Assembly (NCBI GenBank): GCA_913056165.1
Contig: CAJXMD010000024.1
Location: 1 to 32,272, forward strand
Direction: 5' to 3'
Source: an uncultured Halieaceae bacterium
GTDB lineage: Bacteria > Pseudomonadota > Gammaproteobacteria > Pseudomonadales > Halieaceae
Length of the DNA: 32,272 nucleotides
A model generated the notes under the pieces. The model was not told the DNA's origin and made no database searches. It worked only from the letters and a program-made list of their open reading frames with translations. The first letter of the stretch is position 1; each line of letters starts with the position of its first letter. The position numbers and the translations under genes are program-made. Below are positions 4,332 to 30,902 of the stretch, piece after piece.

Positions 4332-4395
4332 TGTGCGAATATCCGCGCCCTCAGATTCGACGCTCTTCGTCGACTATTCTCTGTTTTATGGCGCC

Positions 4396-4480
<85 letters not shown>

Positions 4481-4557
4481 TTTTGGGGCGCTTGGTTGCC
4501 AATAAAACAGTCAGGCTTAGTAAAAAGTGGGTTGGTTACCTTGAGCAGGAGACACTA

Positions 4558-5883: not shown

Positions 5884-5931
5884 CAAAGGAATACAATGAG
5901 TGGCCTGTAACGTGGTCACAAGAGGACAAGC

Positions 5932-6567: not shown

Positions 6568-6661
6568 TACGACACAATTTTAGTCAGGACTTGCATTACG
6601 GCCCGAAACCAATCAAGGTTTGGGGTACAGACGTTGAGCATAGTCACCCGGGAAGGACGTA

Positions 6662-7942: not shown

Positions 7943-8003
7943 AAGCGACGGGCTGTCGCGCCCGAGTTCATTACCTCAGACAACCAGAATGTTGTGAGCT
8001 GCG

Positions 8004-8033
8004 CTTGCAAAACCCGCGTATCATCCCCATATA
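8004..8033 (+). promoter_or_regulatory. Sigma-32 heat-shock promoter for lon
   Basis: The sequence CTTGCAA (8004-8010), a 14-base spacer and CCCCATATA (8025-8033) match the sigma-32 consensus CTTGAA - N13-17 - CCCCATnT closely. It lies 24 bases before the lon start codon, so the 5' leader would be very short. lon is a classical heat-shock gene, which supports the call. Confidence 0.82.
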
Positions 8034-8057
8034 TCAGGGAGTGAACCGGAGATTCCT

Positions 8058-10472: not shown

Positions 10473-10540
10473 TCCACCGTGAATAGGACTGCAGTTGGGG
10501 CGGAAAGGGTGATATACCCTCATAAAATGGCCGTTTAGCG

Positions 10541-10568
10541 TTGACCCCCAGCGGAAACGCAGTATAAC
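10541..10568 (+). promoter_or_regulatory. Sigma-70 promoter for hupB
   Basis: TTGACC (10541-10546), 16-base spacer, TATAAC (10563-10568). Five of six bases match in each hexamer. It lies about 65 bases before the GTG start of hupB, giving a leader of about 58 nt. An additional TATACCCT/CATAAAAT run at 10513-10527 might be a second -10. Confidence 0.72.
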
Positions 10569-10632
10569 CTTATCAAGCGTACGAAAAGCTACATCATTGT
10601 CCGACGCACTAACAACAAAGAGGGGTAACTCC

Positions 10633-10905
10633 GTGAATAAGAATGATCTAATTGATGCTATTGCTGCTGAAGCAGACTTGTCCAAAGCCTCAGCCGGTCG
10701 AGCGCTCGATGCTGCACTGGGCGCCGTTACTTCTGCGCTTAGCAAGCAGGAAACCGTATCACTTGTTGGTTTCGGCACCTTCCAAGTGAAGCATCGTGCA
10801 GCGAGAGAAGGCCGGAATCCGCGAACAGGGGATACGATACAGATTGCCGCCTCCAACGCGCCCAGCTTCAAGGCTGGTAAAGCACTGAAGGACGCCTGTA
10901 ACTAA
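10633..10905 (+). CDS. hupB: DNA-binding protein HU-beta
   Basis: Small nucleoid protein that bends and compacts DNA as a dimer. The start is the GTG at 10633, giving [11 protein letters not shown] and a 90-residue product, exactly the family length; the upstream ATG at 10597 would add 12 unsupported residues. AAGAGGGG precedes the GTG. GFGTF and the DNA-binding arm GRNPRTG are present. It has its own promoter and is followed by an intrinsic terminator, so it is a monocistronic gene between lon and ppiD, the usual order in Pseudomonas and relatives. Confidence 0.96.
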
Positions 10906-10961
10906 CAGGGCGTTTTAGTTAAAAGACAGTTTGGCGCTCTGGGAACCCGGAGCGTCTAATC

Positions 10962-10983
10962 AAGGCGCTTTGGCGCCTTTTTT
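10962..10983 (+). terminator. Intrinsic terminator after hupB
   Basis: Stem AAGGCGC/GCGCCTT around the loop TTTG (10962-10968 with 10973-10979), running into six Ts. A second imperfect GC hairpin lies directly upstream around 10933-10956. Confidence 0.85.
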
Positions 10984-11040
10984 ATGGTCGACGTTACCTA
11001 CGTTGGACCGTTGTGACTCGAGAATGGACGTAAACAAATT

Positions 11041-17164: not shown

Positions 17165-18679
17165 TCAACGCTGGTTACGAACGATGACCGAGACACCCAG
17201 CTTCGACATAGTTGTCTTGGATTTTTTTATCTCCCAAAGGGTAAGTGGATGGGTTTTTCTCCAGCCCGAGGGGACGTAGATGATGAGTCGTTTTTTGTCC
17301 GCCGCTATAGAAATATCGTCGATAGACTCAATCGATTCGCTCCACTTGAACAGGATTGCAAGTCGCAACAAAGCCGTCAGTCTTGCAAAAGAGTCGTGAA
17401 ACTTTTTTGGCAGATTTTCGAGCAACTCTGAGGGCAGTTTCCCTTGCTGTCCTCGCAGCAGCACGGCCATGATTTCTTGTTCGTCCTGAGAAAAGCCGGG
17501 CATGTCCGTATTCTGTATGAGGTACGCAGAGTGGTGATGATGGTGTTTCTGTGAAATGGCAACACCAATTTCATGACACCGACCTGCCCACGCCGCCAGC
17601 TCGATGTGTTGGTCGTTGAGGTTCCATGAGCGCGCGACGCTGGATGCAAGCCAGATGACCCTATCGCTCACGGACTGAGCCGCACCTTCGTCCGATCCAT
17701 ATCGGGACACCATCGCGGCGATAGAGCGCTCTCTTACGTCTTCGTGGGTGAGCCGCCCGACCAAATCGTAAATAACGCCCTCACGCAGCGCGCCTTTCGA
17801 CGTCCTCATGGTTTCAATTTTCAAGCCGTGGAATATAGCCATGGTGATGGCAACACCTGAAGCAATGACGTGTTTTCTCTTGTCACTCAGCCCTTCGAGG
17901 TCAATATCATCGGCATGCCGAAATTCCAGCAAGCGTTTCTTCAGTTTTTCCAGAGACTTTCTGTCAATTCCGCTCTCCAGCCAGCCCGCGTGTTGGATCA
18001 ATAGTTCGATCGCTTGAAGAGTACCGGAGGCACCCACCGCCTCGTTCCAATGTTTGGATTGATAGTTTTTTCGAATGTGGGAAACCTCGAGCAGGGCATG
18101 CTCGTAGGCTTGCCTGAAGTTTTTTGCGGTGATGCCGCCCTCAGGAAAAAATTGCTGGGCGTAACTCACACAGCCCAGCTGAAGACTTACCAACCGCTGA
18201 GGCTCAAATCGCTGACCCACGATGAACTCGGTACTACCTCCGCCAATATCGACAACAAGCCGGCTTGATTCGTCATCTGCAAGAGTGTGAGCAACCCCTA
18301 AGTAAATGAGGCGGGCTTCTTCTCTGCCGTACACCACGTCGATAGGTGCGCCCAGCACTGCTTCAGCTGCATCCGTAAATTCACGCCTGTTTTTAGCTTG
18401 GCGGAGAGCATGGGTGCCAACGATTCGAATGCCGGTAATCTCGACGCTCTCCAAAAGCTGGGCGAAGCGGGTCAAGCAATCTAGGCCTCTCGCCATGGCA
18501 TCCTCTGCTAGGCGACCTCTCTCGAAACCAGCTCCAAGCTGCACTCTCTCGCCGAGGGTGTGTATAGGTCTTATTTCCCCATGCTCCACCCTGGCGATAA
18601 TTAAGTGAAAGGAATTGCTCCCCAAATCTATTGCGCCAAGCAGACTGCCCTCAGCCGCAGATAGGCTTGATTCAACCAC
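17165..18679 (-). CDS. ppx: Exopolyphosphatase (Ppx/GppA family)
   Basis: Hydrolyses terminal phosphates from polyphosphate and possibly the pppGpp 5' phosphate. The 504-residue product has the actin-like fold motifs DLGSNSFHL at 18-26, the catalytic glutamate region GREEARLI (Glu120/Glu121; E. coli Glu121) and VVDIGGGSTEF at 142-152, followed by the C-terminal HD-like domain (HEIGVAIS, QHHHHHSAY-like). The start is GTG 18679, preceded by GGAGG. It is 33 bases downstream of alr on the same strand and may be the last gene of the long operon. There is no ppk next to it. Ppx is favoured over GppA by length (about 500 residues). Confidence 0.9.
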   Translation of the reverse strand: MVESSLSAAEGSLLGAIDLGSNSFHLIIARVEHGEIRPIHTLGERVQLGAGFERGRLAEDAMARGLDCLTRFAQLLESVEITGIRIVGTHALRQAKNRREFTDAAEAVLGAPIDVVYGREEARLIYLGVAHTLADDESSRLVVDIGGGSTEFIVGQRFEPQRLVSLQLGCVSYAQQFFPEGGITAKNFRQAYEHALLEVSHIRKNYQSKHWNEAVGASGTLQAIELLIQHAGWLESGIDRKSLEKLKKRLLEFRHADDIDLEGLSDKRKHVIASGVAITMAIFHGLKIETMRTSKGALREGVIYDLVGRLTHEDVRERSIAAMVSRYGSDEGAAQSVSDRVIWLASSVARSWNLNDQHIELAAWAGRCHEIGVAISQKHHHHHSAYLIQNTDMPGFSQDEQEIMAVLLRGQQGKLPSELLENLPKKFHDSFARLTALLRLAILFKWSESIESIDDISIAADKKRLIIYVPSGWRKTHPLTLWEIKKSKTTMSKLGVSVIVRNQR

Positions 18680-18712: not shown

Positions 18713-19783
18713 TTAGGTTATCCACCGCCGGGCTGCTCGATCAGGTAAGCGTGTTAACAGTTCGTATCCAATGGTATCCGCTTTCGCAGCCACATCGTTA
18801 ACGGGCAAGTGCTGACCCCACAACTCAACCGAACTTCCTACCGCTACTGACGGATGGTCAGTGACGTCGACTGTTATCATGTCCATCGAAACGCGGCCGA
18901 CCAAGGGGCAGCGTTGACCCGAAATCAAGACCGGCGTGCCGTTGGCGGCGGTTCTGGGGTAGCCATCACCATACCCGACAGGGACTGTAGCCACTCGGCT
19001 TTCCCTCTCGGCCTGCCATCGACCACCATAACCAACAAATTCTCCTGCGGGAACTCGTCGAATCGCCATGACCGACGACTTTAACTGCATAACGGGAATG
19101 AATTTTTTCTCTGCCTTATCGGGTTGACCGCCAGCTCCGTAGAGGAGAATGCCCGGGCGCACCCAGTCACTGGAAACCGCGAAAGACTCAAGAAGTCCAG
19201 CGGAATTTAGAAGGCTTGTGGGCAAAGAGTGGGTTTCAACGGTGGCGCGCCAACGCTGTATTTGCATTTTAGTCATGGGCGATTCCGGGGATTCGGCATC
19301 TCCGAGATGACTCATTAATCCGGTTCGACGATGGCCCGATCGCTCTAGCTGGCGAAGCAGGGTCTCGAGATCGGCTCCAGCTAGTCCAAGGCGATGCATC
19401 CCGGTATCGATTTTTAGCCAAACCATACTGTCCGCCTGTAATCCCGCTGAGACTAGCAAGTCCAATTGGGCCGGGCTGTGAATGACGGTCTCAAGCCGAT
19501 TATTTGCGATGAACGTCGCGTCATCTTTATCGAAGGGGCCTTCTAGGATGTTAATTGTGCAGTCAAAACCCGCGTCGAGCAGTTGCGATGCCTCCTCGCA
19601 GAACGCCACGGCTAAACCATTGGCATACTCCGCCAACACCTGGGCACACTGTGTCATGCCGTGACCATAGGCGTCGCCCTTAACCGCGGCGCTCACCTTT
19701 CGGTTTCCCGCTAGTGAGCGTGTCAGCACAGCGTTATGCCTGAGCGCGCCGAGATCGATGTTAATGTGAGTGGGTCTCGTCAA
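18713..19783 (-). CDS. alr: Alanine racemase
   Basis: PLP enzyme interconverting L- and D-alanine for peptidoglycan. The 356-residue product has the PLP lysine Lys35 in VKGDAYGHG, KIDTGMHRLG at 124-133, the catalytic Tyr252 in VGYGGRW and the SMDMITVDV segment at 299-307. The only usable start in frame is TTG at 19783 (preceded by AGGGG), giving MTRPTHINIDLGALRHN, which matches family N-termini. It begins 8 bases after the Dat-like gene, so the two are very likely cotranscribed. Position suggests it feeds or drains the D-alanine made or used by the transaminase. Confidence 0.95.
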   Translation of the reverse strand: MTRPTHINIDLGALRHNAVLTRSLAGNRKVSAAVKGDAYGHGMTQCAQVLAEYANGLAVAFCEEASQLLDAGFDCTINILEGPFDKDDATFIANNRLETVIHSPAQLDLLVSAGLQADSMVWLKIDTGMHRLGLAGADLETLLRQLERSGHRRTGLMSHLGDAESPESPMTKMQIQRWRATVETHSLPTSLLNSAGLLESFAVSSDWVRPGILLYGAGGQPDKAEKKFIPVMQLKSSVMAIRRVPAGEFVGYGGRWQAERESRVATVPVGYGDGYPRTAANGTPVLISGQRCPLVGRVSMDMITVDVTDHPSVAVGSSVELWGQHLPVNDVAAKADTIGYELLTRLPDRAARRWIT

Positions 19784-19791
19784 GAGGGCCC

Positions 19792-20661
19792 CTAGTAATC
19801 AAAGCGATGAAGATTGAGTAAGCTCTGGGCCATCGACCAAACAGGTCCCGGTTCGCCAGATCCCACCTTGCAGCCGTCAATCTCAGTAACCGGCGATAGC
19901 TCCTTGGTTGAGCTGGACAACCAAACCTCATCTGCTGTCGCGACCTGCTCACGGCTGACCGCCATCTCGTGGCATGGGACAGTCCCGTGATCCCGCAAAA
20001 TATCAATCAACATGTTTCTGGTTATTCCGCCCAGTTTCTGATGGTCAAGTGGAGGCGTGTATATTTCCCCGTCTTTCACAATAAAGACATTACTCGTTGA
20101 GGCCTCGGTAAGCTCGTCGTTATCGTTGAACAGCAAGATTTCCTCGCAGCTCTGTGCAACCCCCTCCATCATGTGCAACACGTTACCAAGTAGTGATACG
20201 GATTTGATATGGCAGCGACTCCAGCGCAGGTCCCGTCTTGTGATAACACGAAAGGTTTCTGACTGTTCCGGGTCGCCGGTTTTGGGCGCTGGGATACTAA
20301 ATGGAAATGCAAAGCTGGTGTGTGTCACCGTATCCGGGAACCTGTGGTTACGCTGTGGCTGCTCTCCGCGCGTGATCTGGAGGTAGAGCCCAAGGTTGCC
20401 CTCACTATTTAGGGCTGAATTTTGATTAAGCAGGTTGGTAAGTATTTCATGGAGTTTTTTCGGTGAAAACGGCATGGACAAACCAATCGCCCCAAGCCCC
20501 TCGCACAATCGATCTTTATGCCGATCAAAGCCAACCAGCCTCCCACCGTAGCTGGGAATTACCTCGTAGATGCCGTCTCCGAATAAAAAACCACGGTCCA
20601 TCGGGGAAATTCTGGCCTCCTCCAGAGGAAGATAGTCTCCATTTAGGAAGGCGATCGCCAT
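19792..20661 (-). CDS. dat: D-amino acid transaminase-like (class IV PLP aminotransferase)
   Basis: Fold-type IV aminotransferase of 289 residues. D-amino acid transaminases exchange the amino group between D-glutamate/2-oxoglutarate and D-alanine/pyruvate. Features are MDRGFLFGDGIYEVIPSYGG near the N-terminus, the PLP lysine Lys152 in RCHIKSVSLLGNVL, and LTEASTSNVF with Glu185. The RxxRCxIKS pattern and the lack of branched-chain-specific features favour Dat over IlvE or PabC, but specificity cannot be fixed by eye. The start ATG overlaps the DUF4392 stop by one base (TAATG). Neighbouring alr, cyclase-type and 5-oxoprolinase genes strengthen a D-glutamate/D-alanine role. Confidence 0.75.
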   Translation of the reverse strand: MAIAFLNGDYLPLEEARISPMDRGFLFGDGIYEVIPSYGGRLVGFDRHKDRLCEGLGAIGLSMPFSPKKLHEILTNLLNQNSALNSEGNLGLYLQITRGEQPQRNHRFPDTVTHTSFAFPFSIPAPKTGDPEQSETFRVITRRDLRWSRCHIKSVSLLGNVLHMMEGVAQSCEEILLFNDNDELTEASTSNVFIVKDGEIYTPPLDHQKLGGITRNMLIDILRDHGTVPCHEMAVSREQVATADEVWLSSSTKELSPVTEIDGCKVGSGEPGPVWSMAQSLLNLHRFDY

Positions 20662-21497
20662 TAGGTGGTGTCCTTTGTAAACAAGTTCATTAAGGTCTGC
20701 AAAAGTCGTTCCGTCTCATCGTTTGTCAGTCCATCTTCGGTTGCTTCTGGTCGCCCTGTGACCCCGTCGACGCCGCCGACACCCGCGATGAACGATAGCA
20801 GGGAGATCGGATTGATATTAGGTAAATTCTTGTGGTCACAGCAGTATGCGCTTAGCAGAGCCAATGCGTAGGCCCCCCAGTTTGAGACGTCCGCAACAAG
20901 TAGCTCGTCACATTTCACGACTGAAGGGTTGATATTGAGTTGTTGGGCCGCTGTGACGACATTACCCATGCCTACCTCATTCCCGCCGTCGCCAATTGCA
21001 ATATGAGGGCAGTCGGCTGCTTCCAGGAATGGCACGACGGACAGGCATTGTTCGGAAATATTATGGCCTTTGATGTTGTAGAAATGGCCGTCAGCCGCCT
21101 CGCCGGGCCGCTCGATACTGATAATGAGATCCGGTGCAAAGGTGTGAAGGTGGCCCAGATTCTTGTCTTGGCTGGTCGAGTCCAAGACGAGTGTGTTGGC
21201 CCGCTGGCCTAACCCATTTACTAGGTTTTCTTCCGCAAGAATCCATGGGGAAGCCCCTTTGCTTCGCAGGAAGTCATGCAAGACCAGCGCACCCGGTGGG
21301 CCGTCGGTTTCAAAGGTGCCCGAGACTGGAAATCCAGTGATGATAAATACATTGCCCGTCACTTGATTCAGCAGATCAGCAGCCCGTGCGTATGAGCCCG
21401 GCTCCAGTGCCTGACGCAGTGTGGCCATGCCTCGATGGTTTTTTGACACCAATAAGGTTTCGATGGCAAGGCCAATCGCCTGCATCTCGTTTGTCAT
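20661..21497 (-). CDS. DUF4392 protein (C-terminal half of D-glutamate cyclase type)
   Basis: A 278-residue protein of the DUF4392 family. In vertebrates this domain forms the C-terminal part of mitochondrial D-glutamate cyclase (DGLUCY), which turns D-glutamate into 5-oxo-D-proline. Visible family features are GNVFIITGFPV at 48-58 followed by TDGPPGA, SIERPGEA at 127-134, the NIKGHNIS segment and IGDGGNEVGMGN at 168-179. There is no signal or membrane segment. The start ATG 21497 overlaps the pxpC stop (ATGA), and the stop overlaps the transaminase ATG, so it is translated as part of the operon. I chose 21497 over the upstream frame extension because it removes a long overlap with pxpC. Exact catalytic role is inferred. 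Confidence 0.82.
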   Translation of the reverse strand: MTNEMQAIGLAIETLLVSKNHRGMATLRQALEPGSYARAADLLNQVTGNVFIITGFPVSGTFETDGPPGALVLHDFLRSKGASPWILAEENLVNGLGQRANTLVLDSTSQDKNLGHLHTFAPDLIISIERPGEAADGHFYNIKGHNISEQCLSVVPFLEAADCPHIAIGDGGNEVGMGNVVTAAQQLNINPSVVKCDELLVADVSNWGAYALALLSAYCCDHKNLPNINPISLLSFIAGVGGVDGVTGRPEATEDGLTNDETERLLQTLMNLFTKDTT

Positions 21498-22453
21498 AGA
21501 GCCCCCAAGGCGGAGAGGAGGGTGTCTTGATAGTGACATGAAAGCCATTGGAGGCGCTCCGCCTGTTCAAGGGGCACCAGTTCAAAGTTGACCGTGCAAC
21601 CCGGACGCGACTGTGCGAGGCGAATGCAATCAGCCGGCGTGATCGCCCCAAACTTCGGATATCCCCCTATAGTCTGTCGGTCGTTCAAGAGCACTAACGG
21701 CTGACCATTTCCAGGGATTTGTAAGCAGCCATAGCACGTACCCTCAGACCAGACTTGCGTTATTCCTGTGCTCACCACCGGTCCTTTAAGTTGGATCGCC
21801 ATTCGATTTGAGGCACCCGTCACTTTGAAGTCTGAATAAAGCAGCTGACTAACTGCCGCTGGATCGAAATCCTCATAATCGAACCCCGGTAAAATACGCA
21901 GGGTTAGGTGAGAGTAGTTTGTGCGCAGACAGCCTTCGCTAATTGGCTCGGGAAAATTCGAGCTCCTCGGGGTAAAAAATGCGCTTTTATCGATGGGGAT
22001 GCGATCGCCATTTCTGAGAGGCCGCCCTGAGATTCCCCCAAGGTGCTCACGTGCTACTGTGCTTCTGCTCCCTAAAACCGCTGGTGAGTCTACTCCCCCC
22101 GAAATTGCCAGAAAGCTGTACACACCGTGATGGCATTGGCCAACCCGAATTAAATCACCTGTTCGTATCGTATGGCGACAAGCCATTTCTACCGGGACAT
22201 CATTCACAAATAAATCGCAGGAGGCGCCCGTCACTGAAATCCAGCAGTCCAATGCTGACTCCAGAACCAATCCACCGTAAGCGATCTCTATACCCGCAGT
22301 CTCGGGCAGATTGTTAACTAGCAGGTTCGCTAGCTTCATCGATAATGGATCAGCTGCACCTCCCTCGGTAAAGCCCAGTCGCAGGTGTCCAAACCGGCCT
22401 CCATCCTGAATGGTTGCTTCGGTGCTTACTTGCTTAACCACGAGATGGGTCAA
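21494..22453 (-). CDS. pxpC: 5-oxoprolinase subunit C (KipA family)
   Basis: Subunit of the ATP-dependent prokaryotic 5-oxoprolinase PxpABC, which opens 5-oxoproline to glutamate. Features are ATIQDGGRFG near residues 13-22, GFTEGGAADPLSMKLAN, FLAISGGVDSPAVLGSRST and SNRMAIQLKGP, all of the KipA/AHS2 family. The open frame extends upstream into pxpB, but the true start is either TTG 22453 (four-base TTGA overlap with the pxpB stop, GGGGGG upstream) or GTG 22441, which best matches the E. coli N-terminus. The product is 315-319 residues. Older annotations call this a biotin-dependent carboxylase-like or allophanate hydrolase-like protein. Confidence 0.92.
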   Translation of the reverse strand: MTHLVVKQVSTEATIQDGGRFGHLRLGFTEGGAADPLSMKLANLLVNNLPETAGIEIAYGGLVLESALDCWISVTGASCDLFVNDVPVEMACRHTIRTGDLIRVGQCHHGVYSFLAISGGVDSPAVLGSRSTVAREHLGGISGRPLRNGDRIPIDKSAFFTPRSSNFPEPISEGCLRTNYSHLTLRILPGFDYEDFDPAAVSQLLYSDFKVTGASNRMAIQLKGPVVSTGITQVWSEGTCYGCLQIPGNGQPLVLLNDRQTIGGYPKFGAITPADCIRLAQSRPGCTVNFELVPLEQAERLQWLSCHYQDTLLSALGAL

Positions 22454-23130
22454 GGAATACCCCCCATTTCCATAAACTCCTGTCGTGTTATGGGGTAGAA
22501 CTGGACTCGGTCGCCAACCTGAATCTTTACTGGAATAGGCCAATCCAACGAAACGAGAGGGATAGGGCAGCGACCCAAAAGTCTCCAGCCGCCCGGCGAT
22601 GCGGTCGGGTACACCGCGGTCTGGTTGTCTGCAATGGCAACACTGCCCGCGGCCACCAATCGCCGGGGAGTTGGCAACCGGGGAATGGTCAAGCGAGCAG
22701 GCGTCTGTCCGAGATAGCAGAAGCCTGGCGCAAAGCCAGTGGCCGCGGCGTCGTATATCGGTGCCGTGTGAAGCCTGACCAATTCGTCAATCGATATCCC
22801 GCACAAGTCAGCGACCTCCGCGAGGTCGGGTCCTGATTCTGGTGAGTACCAAACCGGAAGCCTTATCAGTTGGCCCTCACGCGTGTTGTCACAAGACTCT
22901 GGATCAAAGCGCTCAACAGCATCAAGCAGGGCAGAGCGATTGGCACTCTCGGGGCAGAAGAATACGACCAGTGAGCGATAGCCGATGACAGTGTCCGAAA
23001 TGAAAAGATTGGGATGGCTTCGAAGGTGGTCTTCCAGAGCCAGTAGCATAGATGTAGTGCCAGCCCCTGGACTCTCTTCCAGTCTGAGGTTAACGCCATT
23101 AGTACCGGCAGGACTGTGGGAGAACTTCAT
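22450..23130 (-). CDS. pxpB: 5-oxoprolinase subunit B (KipI family)
   Basis: Second subunit of PxpABC; its B. subtilis homologue KipI also inhibits the sporulation kinase KinA. The 226-residue product has the family segments LHTAPIYDAAATGFAPGFCYLG (with GFAPGFCYLG at 132-141) and the AGSVAIADNQTAVYP and SPGGW stretch at about 161-182. It starts 11 bases after pxpA and its stop overlaps the pxpC start. In some bacteria B and C are fused; here they are separate. Confidence 0.93.
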   Translation of the reverse strand: MKFSHSPAGTNGVNLRLEESPGAGTTSMLLALEDHLRSHPNLFISDTVIGYRSLVVFFCPESANRSALLDAVERFDPESCDNTREGQLIRLPVWYSPESGPDLAEVADLCGISIDELVRLHTAPIYDAAATGFAPGFCYLGQTPARLTIPRLPTPRRLVAAGSVAIADNQTAVYPTASPGGWRLLGRCPIPLVSLDWPIPVKIQVGDRVQFYPITRQEFMEMGGIP

Positions 23131-23141
23131 TTGGCCCGACC

Positions 23142-23933
23142 CTATCCCAAGGCCTCTCGGATAGCTTTGGCAATGGCTACGGCATCAGGGGTATCGCCAT
23201 GAACACAGATGGTGTCGGGGACGAGTTTCAGTCGCTTTCCCGACTGACTGCGCAGCTGTTGAGAGGATATGGCCAAGGCTTGCTCGACGGCTTTGTCAGC
23301 GCCAAGCACGGCTTTTGGATCGCAGCGGGGGATAAGGGTTCCCGAGGACGTGTATCCCCGATCGGCGAAGGCCTCGAAGCGCAGCGAGACGCCATATTCA
23401 ATGCCCATTTGTACCGTTTTCTTATCAGTCGGAGTCGCCATTACAACCAGATCAGCGCCGCGGAACCAGGTAGCGGCCGCTTTGATGATCGTCTCGGTGA
23501 GGTCTCTATCACCGACCATGTCGTTGTAGAGTGCACCGTGGGGTTTGAGGTAGGTCGGGCGAACCCCATGTGATCGTGCTATACCGTCGAGAGCTCCCAT
23601 TTGATAATGGATACAGTCGATTAACTCCTGACCACGGAGATTCATTGAACGACGGCCGAAGCCTTGAAGATCCGGGTATCCGACGTGCGCGCCGATTTCA
23701 ACTTTGTGGCGCTTGGCAAGCATCAGTGTTTTGCGCATGACGCTCGGATCGCCAGCGTGGAATCCACAGGCAATGTTGGCGCAATCAATCAGGCTCATGA
23801 TCTCTTCGTCATGGCCCATATGCCAGGGGCCAAAGCTCTCGCCAAGATCACAATTAAGCAGTGGCTTCTTTGTTGTCGTTACTGCTTTTGATTTGCGGCT
23901 TCTACGGCTGACGACTTGCTTTACCGATTTCAT
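23142..23933 (-). CDS. pxpA: 5-oxoprolinase subunit A (LamB/YcsF family)
   Basis: Subunit A of PxpABC, cytoplasmic. The 263-residue product has NCDLGESFG at 27-35, ANIACGFHAGDP at 52-63, the GAHVGYPD stretch at 81-88 and KPHGALYN at 130-137, all diagnostic. ATG 23933 is the only start codon in frame before the conserved region (AGGA six bases upstream). It gives a 24-residue basic lead (KSVKQVVSRRSRKSKAV) not usual in the family, and a 32-base overlap with the end of the DUF1445 gene. The lead may be flexible or an assembly aid; a targeting role is unlikely in a bacterium. Confidence 0.94.
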   Translation of the reverse strand: MKSVKQVVSRRSRKSKAVTTTKKPLLNCDLGESFGPWHMGHDEEIMSLIDCANIACGFHAGDPSVMRKTLMLAKRHKVEIGAHVGYPDLQGFGRRSMNLRGQELIDCIHYQMGALDGIARSHGVRPTYLKPHGALYNDMVGDRDLTETIIKAAATWFRGADLVVMATPTDKKTVQMGIEYGVSLRFEAFADRGYTSSGTLIPRCDPKAVLGADKAVEQALAISSQQLRSQSGKRLKLVPDTICVHGDTPDAVAIAKAIREALG

Positions 23934-24717
23934 GAAAGTCCTCGTGAGTGATATCTGTAATGAGCATATGACCCGGTGCATGGGTGAATGCCCTCGGTAG
24001 CTTCGCATTTTCCAACACCACCTGAGGTGTCACACCGCAGGCCCAGAAGATTGGAACCTCGTTCGGCTTGAGTGAAACGGGGTCCCCGAAATCTGGTTGC
24101 TCCAGATCAGCTATGCCTATCGCAAGGGGGTCTCCAGAATGGACCGGGGATCCGTGCGCTTCTGTATAGTCACCACTTATTCTCGTGGCCACAACAGCGT
24201 CCTCGGGCAGCATGGGACGCATGCTGACCACCATGTTTCCCTTGAAAGGGCCCACTTCAAAACACGGGATGGAGGTGCGGTACATCGGAATATTAGTATT
24301 TTGCGTCAGGTGCCGGAGCTCAATGCCCGCCGCGACTAGGGCTTCATCGAATGAAAATGAGCAGCCGAGAACGAAAGCCACATCCTCCGGTTCCCAGTAG
24401 TCCTTTAATGAAGGTGTCTCCGCCTCCAGAGCTCCATTCCTCCAGCAGCGATAACGGGGCAAATCGGTTCTTATGTCAATGTTGAGTCCAAGTGAGGGCA
24501 TGCTGGGATTCCCCGGGGTTGAGCTCCTAGCAAGCAGTGGGCAGGGCTTTGGGTTTGCTCGACAGAAGCCTTCGAACGCGTCGGCGAACGAGTTCGGCAC
24601 GATCACCAGGTTTCCCTGTAAGAACCCGCCCGCTAAGCCGCTTGTCGGGGATTGATAGTCCCCGCAGCGTATTGCTTCTCTCCACAGCGCTGGAGATGCA
24701 TCTTTGGACAATTCCAT
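23902..24717 (-). CDS. DUF1445 / YcsI protein (N-terminal half of D-glutamate cyclase type)
   Basis: A 271-residue DUF1445 protein, often labelled putative hydro-lyase. The domain forms the N-terminal part of eukaryotic D-glutamate cyclase (DGLUCY), and B. subtilis ycsI lies in the 5-oxoprolinase (ycsF-kipIA) operon. Conserved pieces are GDYQSPTSGLAGGFLQGN at 19-36, KPCPLL at 57-62, DLPRYRCWRNG at 85-95, GCSFSFDEAL at 118-127, WACGVTPQ at 225-232 and THAPGHMLITDI at 245-256. It is the first gene of the operon; GAGAG precedes the ATG. Upstream 237 bases, shared with a divergent gene, should hold the promoter, but I see only a weak CATAAT -10 candidate. Reaction is inferred from homology and context. 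Confidence 0.85.
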   Translation of the reverse strand: MELSKDASPALWREAIRCGDYQSPTSGLAGGFLQGNLVIVPNSFADAFEGFCRANPKPCPLLARSSTPGNPSMPSLGLNIDIRTDLPRYRCWRNGALEAETPSLKDYWEPEDVAFVLGCSFSFDEALVAAGIELRHLTQNTNIPMYRTSIPCFEVGPFKGNMVVSMRPMLPEDAVVATRISGDYTEAHGSPVHSGDPLAIGIADLEQPDFGDPVSLKPNEVPIFWACGVTPQVVLENAKLPRAFTHAPGHMLITDITHEDFHEIGKASRQP

Positions 24718-24954
24718 CTCTCAATATCCAGTCAGCGGTTCGAATGGGTCGTTTGATCCTCTGAGTGCAGAGTACCTTAAAACAGCGGTATTATGTTTTT
24801 GAAAGGCCCTTGTGGGGCGCTCTGAGAGGGGACAGATTCACACTGCATTCTCGATTTTGCATCTGATTTAATGATAAACATAGAGACCGTGGTCATTAAG
24901 TTAATCCGTCGTTTCGCCAAACAATTATAAACACCTAACCGTAAGGAATGCCCA

Positions 24955-26490
24955 ATGCCACATCTGTCTGTGACTGCAGCCGAAACCCCGAACAAGCCTG
25001 CGTTCATTCTGGCGAATTCGGGAGAAATCGTGACCTATGGTGAGCTTAATGATCGCAGTAATCAGATAGCGCAATTATTTCGCCTGTGTGGAGTGGCACC
25101 CGGTGATCACGTTGCGATGATGCTGGTGAACTGTCGGGAATTTCTAGAGGTTGTTGGGGGGGCAATGCGTGCCGGAGTCATTTTCACTCCCATTAGCACG
25201 CATCTCAAACAAGACGAGACAGCCTACATACTTGAGAATTGCGGAGCCAAGTTGTTCATTGCTTCGGCGTGTCTCGCGGAGGTTGCACAGACGATGGTTT
25301 CTGCAGCGCCGGGTGTGAGCCATTTTTATATGGTGGGAGGCGTGCAGCCGGGCTTCGAGTCGTTTGAGGAAACCGTGGATCTACTGCCCACTTCGCCAAT
25401 AGACGATCAGTGCATGGGAGCGCCAATGCTCTATTCCTCGGGCACGACCGGGAAACCCAAGGGCATTTTTATACCACCCCACACCGATCAATGGGATGCT
25501 CCGCTTGGGCTCACGGGGTCAATAGGCGCTGCATTTGGATTCGGTCCTGAAACCACCTATTTATCGCCAGCCCCGCTGTATCACGCAGCACCCCTGCACT
25601 ACAACATGGTTGTTCTGGACTCCGGAGGGACATCTGTTGTGATGGAGAAGTTTGACGCTGTCAGGGCCCTGGAGCTCATTGAACAGCATCGAATCACTCA
25701 CAGTCAGTGGGTGCCCATCATGTTTGTCAGGATGCTCAAACTTGATGAGGAAACCCGGAGCCGATTCGACCTGTCATCAATGCAGGTGGTGCTTCACGCT
25801 GCCGCGCCTTGCCCCATCGACGTAAAGGAAAAAATGATTGAGTGGTGGGGCCCCATCATCATCGAGTACTACTCTTCTAGCGAGGGTGCCGGGTTTACGC
25901 TAATTGATTCCAACGACTGGCTGTTGCACAAAGGATCCGTCGGTAAACCCCTATTCGGCGTACCCCATGTTTTGGATGAGGAGGGGCGTGAATTGCCAGC
26001 GGGTGAAGTCGGTACCATTTGGTTTTCGGAGATCCACACGCCCTTCGAATACCATAACGAGCCCGAAAAGACCTCGGAGGTCTACAACAAAGACGGCTGG
26101 ACTACGATCGGTGATGTGGGCTACTTGGATGAGGATGGGTATTTATTCCTCACGGATCGCCGTAACTTCACCATTATCACCGGTGGGGTCAACGTATATC
26201 CCGCGGAGATAGAAAATGTGCTGATCGGGCACGAGCGAGTTGCTGATGTGGCAGTTTTTGGTGTGCCTGATGATGAATTTGGTGAGATCGTACAGGCGGT
26301 TGTTCAGCCCGCCGACTGGTCTCAAGTTTCAGATGAACTAGCGGCAGACCTTATCGATTGGCTGAAAGAGCGCTTATCAAATCTTAAAGTTCCCAAGAGG
26401 CTGGACTTTATCGAGGAGTTGCCCCGAATGGACAATGGCAAACTATACAAGCGTCACCTAATGGAAGCCTATCGCAATCGTGATGTGTAA
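24955..26490 (+). CDS. AMP-forming acyl-CoA synthetase
   Basis: ANL-superfamily ligase that activates a carboxylic acid with ATP to an acyl-AMP and then a CoA thioester. The 511-residue product has the A3 P-loop YSSGTTGKPKG at 160-170, the A5 motif YYSSSEGAGF, the A7 segment GWTTIGDVGYLDEDGYLFLTD, A8 NFTIITGGVNVYP and the terminal NGKLYKR with the catalytic lysine. AAGGA lies before the ATG. Substrate cannot be read from sequence; FadD3/FadD13-like medium or cyclic acyl substrates are possible. It is divergent from the DUF1445-pxp operon and convergent with the permease gene after a 3-base gap. Confidence 0.9.
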   Translation: MPHLSVTAAETPNKPAFILANSGEIVTYGELNDRSNQIAQLFRLCGVAPGDHVAMMLVNCREFLEVVGGAMRAGVIFTPISTHLKQDETAYILENCGAKLFIASACLAEVAQTMVSAAPGVSHFYMVGGVQPGFESFEETVDLLPTSPIDDQCMGAPMLYSSGTTGKPKGIFIPPHTDQWDAPLGLTGSIGAAFGFGPETTYLSPAPLYHAAPLHYNMVVLDSGGTSVVMEKFDAVRALELIEQHRITHSQWVPIMFVRMLKLDEETRSRFDLSSMQVVLHAAAPCPIDVKEKMIEWWGPIIIEYYSSSEGAGFTLIDSNDWLLHKGSVGKPLFGVPHVLDEEGRELPAGEVGTIWFSEIHTPFEYHNEPEKTSEVYNKDGWTTIGDVGYLDEDGYLFLTDRRNFTIITGGVNVYPAEIENVLIGHERVADVAVFGVPDDEFGEIVQAVVQPADWSQVSDELAADLIDWLKERLSNLKVPKRLDFIEELPRMDNGKLYKRHLMEAYRNRDV

Positions 26491-26493: not shown

Positions 26494-27873
26494 CTAGCGA
26501 ACGCCCAAGGCCGCGGCTGCGATGGTCACCATCGTCGCTACCACTGGTATGAGCACGGTGATAACGCCGACGTCACGATAAGCTTGTTTGTGAGTCAACT
26601 GGGTGATGGTGAGCATTGCTACCACAGCACCGCAATGTGGTAGGGAGTCGAATCCTCCGCTCGCTATGGTTGCAATTCGATGTAGCACATCGGGCTCTAC
26701 GCCCATCTCAAGATAGGTAGGCGCCAAGGTCTGCATGAATATCTGTAGTCCCCCTGATGCAGAACCGGTAATTGCCGAGATCAAGCTAATAGATCCGAAC
26801 ACGCTAAGTAGTGGCGGCAATCCAGAGCCGACCGCCAAGCCAAGGAACGCTTTAAAACCTGCGGTCTGTGTGACAACACCGGCGAAGCCAATTACGGCGG
26901 CGGTGTTTATGAGTGGGAGAATGGCATCCTGGGTTCCTTGGCCCATGACGTTCAACGCTGAGGACCGAACTCGAGAAAATAGAGAGACCGCGAGCGTGCT
27001 GCCAATAGCCAGTGCAATGCTCGGCCAAAGGACGGGTTGGCTGTTTGCAAATGCAAGGGCCTCACCAAAGCTGCCTTCCACTGATATGTTTGCAGCGACG
27101 ATGGCTCGAGGCAGCATGATAATGGATAAGACGACCACAAGCGGAAAGAGGGCGAGGAGCCAGTGGGGTAAAGCCCCAATGTCAGTATCAATGAGTTGGT
27201 CACGTGGGCCGGGCTCGAACCCCTCACCATTCTGGGCTGCCTGGCGTCTCTGACGCTCGAGATACCAGAGGCCGAGAGAGAACATAGTCATACCTCCAAT
27301 CACCCCCAGCCAGGGCGCTGCAAAGAGACTGGTGTTCAGCGCGGTTGCAGATATGACATTTTGTATCGATGGCGTTCCTGGCAGCGCGGTCAGGGTAAAG
27401 GTGCCTGCGCCAAGAGCCAGAGCGGCACAGAAAAGACGTTTCGGGATATTTGCCTCTTTGAGTAGCTGCAGCCCAAGGGGATACATAGCAAAAATCACAA
27501 CGAAAACCACGACGCCTCCATAAGTGAGCAAGGCACAGGCGAGGGTAGTCACCGTCAGGGCTCGCTCGGCCCCCATGCGGTTGATCAGTGCGGTGGCGAC
27601 AGAGGCGGCTGCGCCGGAGTCACCCATGACCCGGCCGAAAATAGCGCCTGCTGTGAAGAGCAAAAAGAACTTGCCGGCGAAAGTGAAAGCGCCCAGTTTT
27701 CCCAGAGTGAAACCATCGAGAAGGGCGTTTGCCAGTGGAAGCTGATTGGTGGCGATAATGACAACGGCGCTCAAAAGCGCAGCAAACACAATGTCAACGC
27801 CTCGCAGGGCCAGCCAAATAAGTAAAAAAACACTTGCCAATAAACCTAAATAACCTACGAAATCACTCGCCAT
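26494..27873 (-). CDS. GntP-family permease
   Basis: Inner-membrane transporter of 459 residues with about 11-13 hydrophobic segments spread over the whole length and a hydrophilic loop near residues 205-235 (ERQRRQAAQNGEG). The N-terminus (FVGYLGLLASVFLLIWLALRG, VDIVFAALL) and the ALPGTPSIQNVI and GFDSLPHCGAV motifs are typical of the GntP family. Members move gluconate, hydroxybutyrate or related hydroxy acids with protons. GGAG precedes the ATG. The substrate is unknown; neighbouring acyl-CoA synthetase suggests a short organic acid such as a hydroxybutyrate-type compound, which is inference only. Confidence 0.85.
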   Translation of the reverse strand: MASDFVGYLGLLASVFLLIWLALRGVDIVFAALLSAVVIIATNQLPLANALLDGFTLGKLGAFTFAGKFFLLFTAGAIFGRVMGDSGAAASVATALINRMGAERALTVTTLACALLTYGGVVVFVVIFAMYPLGLQLLKEANIPKRLFCAALALGAGTFTLTALPGTPSIQNVISATALNTSLFAAPWLGVIGGMTMFSLGLWYLERQRRQAAQNGEGFEPGPRDQLIDTDIGALPHWLLALFPLVVVLSIIMLPRAIVAANISVEGSFGEALAFANSQPVLWPSIALAIGSTLAVSLFSRVRSSALNVMGQGTQDAILPLINTAAVIGFAGVVTQTAGFKAFLGLAVGSGLPPLLSVFGSISLISAITGSASGGLQIFMQTLAPTYLEMGVEPDVLHRIATIASGGFDSLPHCGAVVAMLTITQLTHKQAYRDVGVITVLIPVVATMVTIAAAALGVR

Positions 27874-27969
27874 ACGTGCTCCAAGTTATTGTTATTAAAT
27901 TTAAAATGAGGTGAATTCAGCTCGGGAATCAATCCTGTATGCAATTCGTCTCTATCATCATCCAGCGGG

Positions 27970-27975
27970 TATACT
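27970..27975 (+). promoter_or_regulatory. Possible -10 element for patatin gene
   Basis: TATACT, five of six consensus bases, lies 34 bases before the GTG at 28010. No good -35 is seen (TTCGTC at 27945-27950 has a 19-base spacer). If used, transcription starts near 27982, which rules out the upstream GTG at 27911. Confidence 0.4.
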
Positions 27976-28009
27976 AACCCCTCTAAACGTTCTGCCAACC
28001 GAGGTATTT

Positions 28010-29695
28010 GTGGGCAACAAACGTAAGATGCGCAATCTTGATGCACGTTTAAACGCCGCAGAGAGTTACGAGCGCTGGTTCGAGATCGCCGCCGAACACG
28101 ACACCCTCAGCGGCATGGATCACTGGCGAGGTGAGGAAGAGACAGACCTTTACGATTATGCACAAATACGGCTGCGGCTGGATCGATTGAAGGCGCTGCG
28201 AAAAAGCAAAGACTATCAAGGCCTCCTTTTTGCTCTCAATGAGGGCATCCACGGGAACATGGGAGGTATGGGGAAGAGCGTTCTCTACCGCATGGCCAAA
28301 TGCGGGACAAAGCATCTTATTGAGGAATATATCGACGAGATAGATTCATCTCTTCGTCTGCTGGCGGAGTTGGATGACGACATTATTCCGATCCAGCAAA
28401 AAATAGAGTTCTTTTATCGGGCGAATATCTGCTTCGGCCGATCTGCGCTAATGCTAAGTGGTGGAGGTATTCTGGGCTTCCTGCACCTGGGGGTGGTCAA
28501 CGTGCTTGCCCAACAAGGCCTGCTGCCAAGGGTTATTTCGGGGTCCAGCGCGGGTGCCCTGGTGGCCGGAGTGCTGGCTTGTCTTAATGACGACGAGTTG
28601 CTGACACTTCAGGATCCAACCTTGCTTCACAGGGAGGCGGATCGTGAGGCCAGCTTCTTTCGTCGTATGCTTGGGGGCGGCTCACATATTAGCCTTGAAG
28701 ACCTCGAGGCGTTGGTTGATCGTCTGGTGCCTGATATGACGTTTCAGGAGGCGTACGCCAAGACCGGTAGGCAGGTAAGCATTACGGTGGCGCCCGCCGA
28801 GCCACACCAGCGATCCCGATTGTTGAATGCTGTTGCGTCGCCGAATGTGTACATTCGCTCTGCCGTGATGGCATCGTGCGCAGTGCCGGGCGTCTTTCCT
28901 CCTGTCATGCTTATGGCGAAGAATGTGCACGGAGAAGCTCAGCCCTACCTGCCAGGGCGGCGGTGGGTCGATGGATCTGTGGCGGACGACCTTCCGGCCA
29001 AGCGTCTTTCTAGATTATTCGGCACCAATCATCACATTGTGAGCATGGTGAATCCCATCGCCACGGCGTTTTTATCAAAAGATGAGGACAGACATCCACT
29101 CTCGAAAGCTGCCGGTACCTTTGGTGTGGGGCTTGGGCGTGAAGTCCTAAACTTTTACCGAGGTATTGCTCAGCGACAGGGGGATAGTTGGCCCCGTTTC
29201 AATATGATGATGCACGGTCTTCACGCCCTCATGGACCAGGAATATACCGGTGACATCAACATCATTCCCAGTTTCCGGATGGCAAATCCAGTAAAACTCC
29301 TCTCTCATATTGATGACAAGCAGCTGCTTGAAATCGTCGAGCATGGGCAGCGGGCTTGCTATGAAAAAGTTGAGGCAATAAGGCGCTGTACTGTAATTTC
29401 GCGCACCCTCGAGGAAATTTTGTATCGGTTTGAGTACGGTGATCTGCGCCCAGACGCACGGAAGTATCGTCGCCCACGCTCCTCCCGACGCAGGCCACCG
29501 CCAACCAAGCAGCAGCTGGAGGTGCTGAAGGCAAGTTCAAAAACGGATACGGATGGGGCGAAGGCCGAGAACCGAAAGAAGACTTCGCCGGCCAGCCCTT
29601 CAAAACGTGTAACGACACAGCGAGGAACCAGCGGAAAACGCGGGACGTCAAAGCGCGGGTCTGCGGCGGGAAGCCCGTCGCGAGTCACTCACTGA
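28010..29695 (+). CDS. DUF3336 patatin-like phospholipase with basic tail
   Basis: Serine lipase/acyl hydrolase of the patatin family, related to the yeast and plant triacylglycerol lipases Tgl3/4/5 and SDP1 through its N-terminal DUF3336 region (about 10-140). The catalytic domain has the oxyanion-hole glycines SGGGILGF, the nucleophile Ser180 in GSSAG and the Asp321 of the DG motif (WVDGSVADDLP). The start is GTG 28010 with GAGG six bases upstream; the upstream frame to 27911 lies before the probable promoter. The 561-residue product ends in a 75-residue tail rich in Arg, Lys, Ser and Pro, low complexity and not part of the family core. Convergent with the phosphotransferase gene. Likely acts on stored lipid or phospholipid. 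Confidence 0.88.
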   Translation: MGNKRKMRNLDARLNAAESYERWFEIAAEHDTLSGMDHWRGEEETDLYDYAQIRLRLDRLKALRKSKDYQGLLFALNEGIHGNMGGMGKSVLYRMAKCGTKHLIEEYIDEIDSSLRLLAELDDDIIPIQQKIEFFYRANICFGRSALMLSGGGILGFLHLGVVNVLAQQGLLPRVISGSSAGALVAGVLACLNDDELLTLQDPTLLHREADREASFFRRMLGGGSHISLEDLEALVDRLVPDMTFQEAYAKTGRQVSITVAPAEPHQRSRLLNAVASPNVYIRSAVMASCAVPGVFPPVMLMAKNVHGEAQPYLPGRRWVDGSVADDLPAKRLSRLFGTNHHIVSMVNPIATAFLSKDEDRHPLSKAAGTFGVGLGREVLNFYRGIAQRQGDSWPRFNMMMHGLHALMDQEYTGDINIIPSFRMANPVKLLSHIDDKQLLEIVEHGQRACYEKVEAIRRCTVISRTLEEILYRFEYGDLRPDARKYRRPRSSRRRPPPTKQQLEVLKASSKTDTDGAKAENRKKTSPASPSKRVTTQRGTSGKRGTSKRGSAAGSPSRVTH

Positions 29696-29704: not shown

Positions 29705-30721
29705 CTATTTTATAAAGCTCAGTCCGAGCTCGGCGAGGGGCGTCATTAGCTTGCCGCGTTCAACCGCTTCGGCACTCGAGGCGTTACCATCCAGGCCTCG
29801 TTTTTTGACCCCTTGGAGAATGGCCGCCAGGCGGAAGAAACAGAAAACGAGGTAGAAACTCCAGTTTTTTATCTCGTCTCTTCCGGTCCTCTCGCAGTAG
29901 GCCTGTATGTACTCGTTGTCTGTGGGTATCTGCAGTGCCTTTCTGTCTACCCCTGCCATCCCTGTAACCCCGCCAGTAGGAGGGAGTTGCCATGCCATCA
30001 CCTGATAGGCGAGGTCAGCGATAGGGTTGCCCAGGGTCGAAAGCTCCCAGTCTAGAACCGCGATGATTCGCGATTCGGTTGGGTGGAACATAAGGTTGTC
30101 GAGTCGGTAATCACCGTGCACTAGAGAAATCTTGCCATCGTCCGTCGGCATGTTCTCAGGGAGCCACGCAATCAGTTTTTCCATGGCATCAATGGTCTCG
30201 GTTTCCGAGGCTCGATATTGCTTTGTCCATCGACTCACCTGTCTCTCGAAGTAATTTCCAGGACGACCATAGTCGGTTAGTCCAGCCGCGGAGACGTCGA
30301 CTTCATGCAAGCATGCCAAGACGCGATTCATGTCGTCGTAGATTGCTCCACGCTCGGCATTCCCAACCTCCGGTATAGCGGGATCCCAGAAAACGCGCCC
30401 CTCCAGGTACTCCATCACGTAGAACATGGAACCGATAATGGTCTCGTCCTCGCAAAGGGCGATCGACTTTGGAACAGGGACATCGGTGTTCTGTAGCGAA
30501 GAAATTACTCTGAATTCCCGATCAACAGCGTGTGCCGAGGCGAGCAAGGCACCTGGCGGCTTGCGACGCAAAACGTACTGCGTGTCCCCGGCCGTCAATT
30601 TAAAGGTCGGATTTGACTGTCCACCGGGGAATTTCTCGGCGGTAATCGGCCCCTCAAAATCCCCGACTTGTTCACTTAGCCAGTCTCTGAGACGAGTGGT
30701 GTCAAGCGTTTGTGTATCCAT
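29705..30721 (-). CDS. APH-type phosphotransferase, acyl-CoA-dehydrogenase-linked family
   Basis: Kinase-like protein of 338 residues in the aminoglycoside-phosphotransferase/ACAD10-11 family. In eukaryotic ACAD10/11 a kinase domain of this type is fused to an acyl-CoA dehydrogenase and acts on 4-hydroxyacyl-CoA; bacterial relatives usually sit in lipid-degradation clusters. Visible are GGQSNPTF (ATP loop) at 33-40, YVLRRKPPG with the ATP lysine, HGDYRLDN at 202-209 (Brenner motif, catalytic Asp204) and VLDWELSTLGNPIADLAY with metal Asp224. I chose ATG 30721 (MDTQTLDTTRLRDWL) because the frame extension to 30781 has no ribosome site. It is divergent from the acyl-CoA synthetase at 30903. Antibiotic resistance is unlikely. 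Confidence 0.85.
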   Translation of the reverse strand: MDTQTLDTTRLRDWLSEQVGDFEGPITAEKFPGGQSNPTFKLTAGDTQYVLRRKPPGALLASAHAVDREFRVISSLQNTDVPVPKSIALCEDETIIGSMFYVMEYLEGRVFWDPAIPEVGNAERGAIYDDMNRVLACLHEVDVSAAGLTDYGRPGNYFERQVSRWTKQYRASETETIDAMEKLIAWLPENMPTDDGKISLVHGDYRLDNLMFHPTESRIIAVLDWELSTLGNPIADLAYQVMAWQLPPTGGVTGMAGVDRKALQIPTDNEYIQAYCERTGRDEIKNWSFYLVFCFFRLAAILQGVKKRGLDGNASSAEAVERGKLMTPLAELGLSFIK

Positions 30722-30902
30722 CAAAAACCATATCCCGTTTCTGTTTACCGTTTTGTCCCAGGCTTTCCGTCGTGCCGACATACTTGCAGTAAAAAAATTT
30801 GAACCTAGAGTATGCTGTGGTTATGCTCCTCAAGGCAAGAATCTATAAGCACCGAGAGACCGCAAGGGTTAAGCACGCTGACGGTGCCATAACGGAGATA
30901 GA

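What the first reader, a model, noticed from the sequence alone, without database searches (positions are those of the whole stretch)
18713..24717. Seven-gene operon combining D-glutamate cyclase halves, 5-oxoprolinase, D-amino acid transaminase and alanine racemase
On the minus strand DUF1445, pxpA, pxpB, pxpC, DUF4392, a Dat-like transaminase and alr are joined by overlaps or gaps of 32-nt overlap, 11, TTGA (4), ATGA (4), TAATG (1) and 8 bases. Known: DUF1445 and DUF4392 are the two parts of vertebrate D-glutamate cyclase; PxpABC hydrolyses 5-oxoproline; Dat exchanges D-Glu and D-Ala; Alr links D- and L-Ala. Inference: the operon is a dedicated module that either disposes of or salvages D-glutamate (for example from peptidoglycan) through two exits, 5-oxoproline and D-alanine. 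The DUF1445-pxp link is known from B. subtilis, but I am not aware of a description of the full set with Dat and Alr.
Basis: partly seen in the sequence, partly recalled or inferred. Interest (0 to 1): 0.8.

Follow-up and report, generated by a model that had tools for sequence, protein, structure and literature searches.

The report
D-glutamate supply-and-drain operon without MurI
A conserved seven-gene set in marine bacteria carries what looks like their only enzymes for making two mirror-image amino acids of the cell wall, beside a five-gene block that probably recycles surplus D-glutamate; this bacterial family seems to lack the usual enzyme that makes D-glutamate.

Summary
The set is not peculiar to this genome: all seven stand in order in 55 of 79 family loci fetched and in 13 of 20 loci from other families of the order. 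Context changes the reading. The usual D-glutamate maker, MurI, passes its cut-off in 1 of 140 family genomes but 173 of 244 in the order. Strong second alr copies are almost absent. In the order, 59 of 67 MurI-less genomes have a Dat, against 30 of 177 with MurI; this does not hold across the phylum. In one subclade the block DUF1445-pxpABC-DUF4392 is gone from the locus while dat-alr stays, a single event. [quoted passage not shown] the five-gene block is a separable, ATP-paid drain of surplus D-Glu through 5-oxoproline. The drain's direction and stereochemistry are inferred; the known PxpABC substrate is the L form.

The parts
23902..24717 (-). cycN: DUF1445 / YcsI-like, N-terminal half of vertebrate-type D-glutamate cyclase
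   Evidence: PF07286 210 bits; NF003969 358 bits, over cut-off 324; PDB 3db9 and 2pif
   Evidence: PF03746 288.5 bits; passes two subfamily models, fails three equivalog cut-offs
22450..23130 (-). pxpB: 5-oxoprolinase subunit B-like
   Evidence: PF02682 189.3 bits; TIGR00370 138.9 bits, just under cut-off 145.55
21494..22453 (-). pxpC: 5-oxoprolinase subunit C-like (TTG start at 22453; longest ORF from 22543)
   Evidence: PF02626 258.9 bits; TIGR00724 over cut-off, NF045499 214.8 bits under cut-off 500
20661..21497 (-). cycC: DUF4392, C-terminal half of vertebrate-type D-glutamate cyclase (ATG at 21497; longest ORF from 21548)
   Evidence: PF14336 189.4 bits; TON_0340 structures by sequence and predicted fold; six metal-ligand acids E80 D82 E146 D187 E191 D272 invariant in 21 sequences
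19792..20661 (-). dat: class IV, D-amino-acid-transaminase-like
   Evidence: PF01063; nearest PDB chains are D-amino acid aminotransferases; Y32, R104, H106, K153 align with Y31, R98, H100, K145 of 3daa and are invariant in 15 sequences; TIGR01121 231.4 bits, under cut-off 277.45
18713..19783 (-). alr: alanine racemase (TTG start)
   Evidence: PF01168 and PF00842; TIGR00492 321 bits, over cut-off 168
24718..24954 (.). spacer between divergent acyl-CoA ligase gene and cycN, the likely promoter region
   Evidence: 237 nt here; in most same-genus relatives 49-96 nt with a CACTATA/TACTATA box that is not evident in the window itself

Best explanation
A D-amino-acid supply-and-turnover operon. Alr makes D-alanine; the Dat-like transaminase turns D-alanine plus 2-oxoglutarate into D-glutamate and so replaces the missing MurI for wall synthesis. 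The separable five-gene block is a drain: the two cyclase halves (DUF1445 + DUF4392) turn surplus D-Glu into 5-oxo-D-proline, which is downhill, and PxpB/PxpC (phosphorylation) with PxpA (ring opening) spend ATP to give glutamate back. Shown here: gene identities, order, conservation, lack of MurI over cut-off, near-single alr, loss of the block as a unit. Inferred: the enzyme activities, that the two halves work together, the direction of flow, and that this PxpABC deals with the D-lactam.
For: MurI over cut-off in 1 of 140 family genomes against 173 of 244 in the order; alr over cut-off in 128 of 140, strong second match only in G042. Dat against MurI in 244 order genomes: both 30, MurI only 147, Dat only 59, neither 8; stratified by family p about 8e-6. 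Dat residues of the D-enzyme kept. S. aureus murI single mutants grow without D-Glu because dat remains; the double mutant does not (PMC5458566, passages). Block lost once while dat-alr stayed. Mouse protein with both domains makes 5-oxo-D-proline from D-Glu (PMC5339696, abstract to discussion). Lactam favoured, Keq [Glu]/[5-OP] about 0.035; PxpB/PxpC assumed to phosphorylate, PxpA to open (PMC13274462, passages).
Against: Known PxpABC acts on 5-oxo-L-proline; action on the D form is unproven. The block also occurs with MurI (G140, G215, G372; five named genomes) and without dat at the locus (for example Thiothrix L202, Leucothrix L250). Dat/MurI exclusion fails across the phylum (110/139/40/30, p 0.06). 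Dat is under the NCBIfam equivalog cut-off. Other MurI substitutes (MurL, DapF) were not tested. A DUF4392 protein was reported as a weak Mn-dependent phosphatase (PMC5132392, passages). No expression data.
Confidence: 0.58

Rival explanations
1. Catabolic salvage: the set disposes of D-Glu from peptidoglycan or seawater through 5-oxoproline and D-alanine, as food.
For: Both exits exist on paper from the gene identities. The block with dat also occurs in genomes that have MurI, where Dat is not needed for supply.
Against: MurI is missing in the family, so something must make D-Glu. dat-alr stays when the five genes are lost. No transporter belongs to the conserved set in the loci compared.
Confidence: 0.2
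2. Metabolite repair beside unrelated wall genes: PxpABC mends 5-oxo-L-proline that forms spontaneously, DUF4392 is a small-molecule Mn phosphatase, and the closeness to dat-alr is only shared expression.
For: Of 22 genomes searched, 20 have exactly one pxpB-family gene, G005 two and G002 none: 11 of 11 block-less genomes tested keep one, and the 10 fetched have a different pxpA-pxpB(-pxpC) set elsewhere, with an Nramp-like gene in the one scanned. TON_0340 phosphatase report (PMC5132392). pxpABC-dat-alr without DUF4392 in G149 (L186).
Against: The two domains are one enzyme with shown D-glutamate cyclase activity in mouse (PMC5339696). cycN-cycC-dat stand together without pxp genes in G273 (L161). 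The phosphatase activity was called very low.
Confidence: 0.2

Closest known systems
Vertebrate D-glutamate cyclase (mouse 9030617O03Rik, human GLUCM/C14orf159; PMC5339696)
   Same: Same two Pfam domains, PF07286 and PF14336; metal ligands of the DUF4392 fold kept
   Different: Two separate genes with pxpABC between them; activity untested. Split homologues of the human protein in gut bacteria are already listed (GLUCM_HUMAN, 6 split, 0 full; PMC11580864, passage)
Prokaryotic 5-oxoprolinase PxpABC, e.g. pxpTABC of Corynebacterium glutamicum (PMC13274462)
   Same: Three subunits encoded side by side
   Different: No uptake gene or GntR regulator; linked to cyclase halves, dat and alr; PxpB and PxpC under NCBIfam equivalog cut-offs. 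B. subtilis linkage of DUF1445 with pxp genes is recalled, from no call
Dat as D-Glu source beside MurI, e.g. Staphylococcus aureus (PMC5458566)
   Same: D-amino acid transaminase able to supply D-Glu when MurI is gone
   Different: Here a Gram-negative family without MurI over cut-off, with dat joined to alr in one operon
DgcN-DgcA route for D-Glu in marine bacteria (dgcN passages in PMC12363236; enzyme names otherwise recalled)
   Same: D-Glu turnover in marine bacteria at an energy cost
   Different: Unrelated proteins; DUF1611 (PF07755) over cut-off in 37 of 140 family genomes and not found in the window's genome, which is 86.7% complete

Membership tests
D-glutamate cyclase (DGLUCY type) | DUF1445 and DUF4392 domains both present | tested here: met
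   PF07286 210 bits, PF14336 189 bits
D-glutamate cyclase (DGLUCY type) | Both domains in one polypeptide, as in vertebrates | tested here: not met
   Two ORFs separated by pxpABC
D-glutamate cyclase (DGLUCY type) | Six acidic metal ligands of the DUF4392 fold | tested here: met
   E80, D82, E146, D187, E191, D272 align with E59, D61, E115, D157, E161, D246 of TON_0340 and are invariant in 21 rows
D-glutamate cyclase (DGLUCY type) | D-Glu to 5-oxo-D-proline activity | not testable with these tools
   needs an assay
5-oxoprolinase PxpABC | PxpA, PxpB and PxpC encoded together | tested here: met
   PF03746, PF02682, PF02626 adjacent
5-oxoprolinase PxpABC | NCBIfam equivalog cut-offs for PxpB and PxpC | tested here: not met
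   138.9 of 145.55 and 214.8 of 500; four other pxpC genes tested, 202.8-214.7, fail the 500 too, so I call it PxpABC-like
D-amino acid transaminase | PLP lysine and the Tyr/Arg/His residues of Bacillus D-amino acid aminotransferase (roles recalled) | tested here: met
   K153, Y32, R104, H106
D-amino acid transaminase | NCBIfam equivalog cut-off TIGR01121 | tested here: not met
   231.4 of 277.45, so I call it Dat-like
Alanine racemase | TIGR00492 cut-off and both Pfam domains | tested here: met
   321 bits of 168; PF01168, PF00842
MurI-free D-Glu supply | No MurI over cut-off in the genome | tested here: met
   own genome 26.6 bits of 146.65, a general Asp/Glu racemase-family protein; genome 86.7% complete
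MurI-free D-Glu supply | No other known MurI substitute (MurL with MurD2, bifunctional DapF) | not tested
   two Pfam accessions recalled for MurL are not in the library; DapF specificity cannot be read from sequence

The most novel reading that the evidence does not exclude
The five-gene block is a one-way, ATP-driven D-to-L glutamate converter: the split cyclase makes 5-oxo-D-proline, and the operon-type PxpABC, or one cyclase half acting as a 5-oxoproline epimerase, returns L-glutamate. With Alr and Dat this closes a D/L-glutamate cycle that has replaced MurI in a large group of marine Gammaproteobacteria, with supply and drain encoded in one operon.
Probability: 0.25. Interest if true: 0.85.

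Novelty: new variant of a known kind. Interest (0 to 1): 0.62.

Why it matters
D-glutamate is a standard part of the bacterial wall, and most Gram-negatives are said to make it with MurI (PMC5885031, passages). A Gram-negative family with MurI over cut-off in 1 of 140 genomes, and with alr and a Dat in one operon, points to another essential route that can be tested directly. It also offers a bacterial setting for the two halves of vertebrate D-glutamate cyclase and asks what happens to 5-oxo-D-proline. PMC12363236 (passages) reports a glutamate racemase in only 0.27 of bacterial cells of surface seawater; Dat operons of this kind may be part of the answer (inference).

Tried and rejected
Rejected: (1) that the arrangement is unique to this genome. 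(2) That Dat and MurI exclude each other across the phylum: 319 genomes, both 110, MurI only 139, Dat-like only 40, neither 30, p 0.06; other orders of the class 12/40/8/7 of 67, p 0.05. Outside the class, Dat-like genes at about 190-230 bits are common beside MurI. (3) That the block is tied to MurI loss: G140, G215 and G372 have all seven genes and MurI; so do, with block and dat, Oceanospirillum beijerinckii, a Neptuniibacter, Rheinheimera soli, R. faecalis and Arsukibacterium ikkense. (4) That block-less genomes moved the same pxp genes: theirs are 25-38% identical to the operon's. (5) Foldseek gave no fold relative for DUF1445 beyond 2pif, 3db9 and a weak MJ0159 match.

Choices in counts. 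In the order sample MurI counted as present at E <= 1e-20 (177; 173 pass the cut-off), and 14 weaker matches as absent. Of 95 genomes with a Dat match at E <= 1e-30, six whose best match was under 140 bits were not counted (G160, G249, G275, G286, G312, G344) and G301 was counted on two fragments. Fisher p-values ignore relatedness. The stratified test either leaves out the eight 'neither' genomes or places them by listing order, only G178 being labelled. The 79 family loci are my choice out of the 140 genomes searched; L120 (murI locus of G138) was left out. L055, L112, L115, L117 and L119 lie at contig ends, and L050 has broken frames. For G207 only a 3.8-kb stretch was seen (L140). Whether DUF1445 lies elsewhere in block-less genomes was not searched.

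Led nowhere: paper searches on 5-oxo-D-proline with oxoprolinase (0 papers) and MurL (0). The listings showed no description of the full set. All ten searches cover open-licence PubMed Central text only. The first PxpABC paper is not held.
Full report
WHAT IS THERE. The window is contig C24 of a 2.43-Mb genome in 114 contigs, 86.7% complete. Family f1, genus g1 of the search tool holds contigs that GTDB titles name Luminiphilus (L188, same length as G109:C5), so this is a Halieaceae-type marine gammaproteobacterium (inference). The seven ORFs are on the minus strand at 18713-24717 and Pfam confirms each. I call the DUF1445 gene cycN and the DUF4392 gene cycC. No interior promoter or terminator stands out over shuffles. 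The neighbours are a divergent acyl-CoA ligase gene (24955-26490) and a ppx/gppA gene (17165-18679).

THE PROTEINS. cycC matches TON_0340 by sequence and by predicted fold (pLDDT 91.6; 5gl2, E 1.5e-18). The six acidic ligands named for TON_0340 (PMC5132392, passages) correspond to E80, D82, E146, D187, E191 and D272, invariant in 21 sequences. That paper reports a very low Mn-dependent phosphatase activity, which counts against a pure cyclase reading. cycN matches 3db9 and 2pif. The transaminase's best PDB matches are D-amino acid aminotransferases; Y32, R104, H106 and K153 align with Y31, R98, H100 and K145 of 3daa and are invariant in 15 sequences. It scores 231.4 against a TIGR01121 cut-off of 277.45, so I call it Dat-like. 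PxpA passes two subfamily models; PxpB and PxpC fall under the equivalog cut-offs; Alr passes.

CONSERVATION. DUF4392 occurs in 114 of 140 family genomes and 68 of 78 good-quality ones. Of 79 family loci that I fetched, 55 have all seven genes in order on one strand, 15 dat-alr only, 3 cycN-pxpA-cycC-dat-alr, 3 all but cycN (one cut by a contig end), 2 cycC-dat-alr at contig ends, and 1 a lone diverged cycC. Of 20 loci from other families of the order, 13, from seven families, have all seven in order. Ten of those 13 genomes lack MurI over cut-off; G140, G215 and G372 have it. Of 80 named GTDB loci, 35 have all seven in order and 24 the first six without alr, some cut by contig ends; the 24 include Rheinheimera, Arsukibacterium, Neptunomonas, Marinobacterium and Oceanospirillum. 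In the five loci with a gene between cycC and dat that I scanned, it is a LysR-type regulator.

MISSING MurI. TIGR00067 passes its cut-off in 1 of 140 family genomes, G138; nine others have weak matches. The window genome's weak match, 26.6 bits, is a general Asp/Glu racemase-family protein. The same model passes in 173 of 244 order genomes and rings over cut-off in 8 of 14 controls. alr passes in 128 of 140 family genomes, with a match in 78 of 78 good ones; the only strong second match is a partial one in G042. In 78 of the 79 loci alr lies beside dat.

DAT AND MurI IN THE ORDER. With the operon Dat profile on the same 244 genomes: both 30, MurI only 147, Dat only 59, neither 8 (Fisher p 3e-25; 2.5e-21 without the own family). 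These values ignore relatedness. Stratified by family the association stays, p about 8e-6 with the eight 'neither' genomes placed by listing order, and 11 families hold both a MurI-less Dat genome and a MurI genome. Against a general rule: in 319 genomes of the phylum the counts are 110/139/40/30, p 0.06, and in 67 genomes of other orders of the class 12/40/8/7, p 0.05. Among 21 named genomes, MurI passes in 7: Oceanospirillum (two), Neptuniibacter, Rheinheimera soli, R. faecalis, Arsukibacterium ikkense and Leucothrix arctica. It does not in 14, among them Rheinheimera sp. D18, Halioglobus pacificus, Pseudohaliea rubra, Parahaliea mediterranea, Seongchinamella unica, Neptunomonas antarctica, three Marinobacterium and SAR92 HTCC2207; six of the 14 have weak matches.

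THE BLOCK IS SEPARABLE. Thirteen same-genus loci (L102-L113, L118) have dat, alr and ppx with no block; 12 of them show the acyl-CoA ligase gene just before dat, and L112 begins at a contig end. DUF4392 was not found in those genomes. In a FastTree of ligase, Dat, Alr and Ppx, the 12 such loci included form one clade, support 1.0, inside block-bearing relatives, so one loss as a unit is the simplest account. The short divergent spacer with a TACTATA-like box, 90-96 nt, then lies before dat; the window's own 237-nt spacer shows no clear copy of the box. Eleven of 11 block-less genomes searched keep one pxpB-family gene, and the ten regions fetched show another pxp set, 25-38% identical, with an Nramp-like gene in L168. 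Elsewhere pxpBC sit apart from the operon in G142 and G185 (L183, L184), cycN-cycC-dat stand without pxp genes in G273 (L161), and G149 has pxpABC-dat-alr with a phosphoribosyltransferase-like gene between and no cyclase (L186).

HOW IT MOST LIKELY WORKS. Alr and Dat make D-Ala and D-Glu. S. aureus with dat but no murI grows without added D-Glu (PMC5458566, passages), so a Dat can suffice. A transaminase sets D-Glu only by the ratio of its substrates, so a drain would help (inference). The mouse protein with both domains turns D-Glu into 5-oxo-D-proline (PMC5339696, parts 1-2 of 4 read). The lactam is favoured, Keq about 0.035, so opening costs ATP; PxpB/PxpC are assumed to phosphorylate and PxpA to open it (PMC13274462, passages). 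The weak point is stereochemistry: PxpABC is known for the L form. Either this PxpABC takes the D form, or there is an epimerisation, or PxpABC mends the L form in parallel. None is shown.

KNOWN OR NEW. Each enzyme kind is known, and split bacterial homologues of the human cyclase are listed in PMC11580864 (6 split, 0 full). The DUF1445-pxp link in B. subtilis is recalled. My ten paper searches showed no account of the full set; they cover open-licence text only. I rate it a new variant of a known kind: a MurI-free D-Glu supply operon joined to a split D-glutamate cyclase and a 5-oxoprolinase.

Noticed in passing
L148, L152, L155, L160, L164 between cycC and dat; by tblastn also L220, L221, L236, L254, L258, L259, L261, L263, L265, L267: A LysR-type regulator gene stands between cycC and dat in relatives such as Neptunomonas, Marinobacterium and Oceanospirillum; it may sense D-Glu or 5-oxoproline.
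   Followed up: partly
L186 8647-9225: G149 has pxpABC, a phosphoribosyltransferase-like gene, dat and alr in a row, with no DUF4392 in the genome.
   Followed up: partly
L067 and L158: Lone diverged DUF4392 genes (24% and 35% to the window's) without the other operon genes.
   Followed up: no
order sample: G178, G197, G214, G242, G292, G298, G333, G358: Eight genomes with neither MurI nor a Dat match; G178 is family f40. They must get D-Glu in another way.
   Followed up: no
L120 / L092 (G138 C53): The only family genome with MurI over cut-off also has dat-alr; the contig is short and the gene may be a transfer or contamination.
   Followed up: no
window 26494-27873, minus: GntP-family permease, weak Pfam match (25 of 22.5 bits), beyond the acyl-CoA ligase; found near the locus in only part of the same genus.
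   Followed up: no
window 61-12915, plus: Ordinary housekeeping run: class IV transaminase-family gene beside yceG (probably pabC), DNA polymerase delta', trigger factor, ClpX, Lon and a SurA/PpiD-like protein.
   Followed up: no
window 27911-29695 plus, 29705-30781 minus: Patatin-like phospholipase with DUF3336, and an APH-family phosphotransferase of unknown substrate.
   Followed up: no
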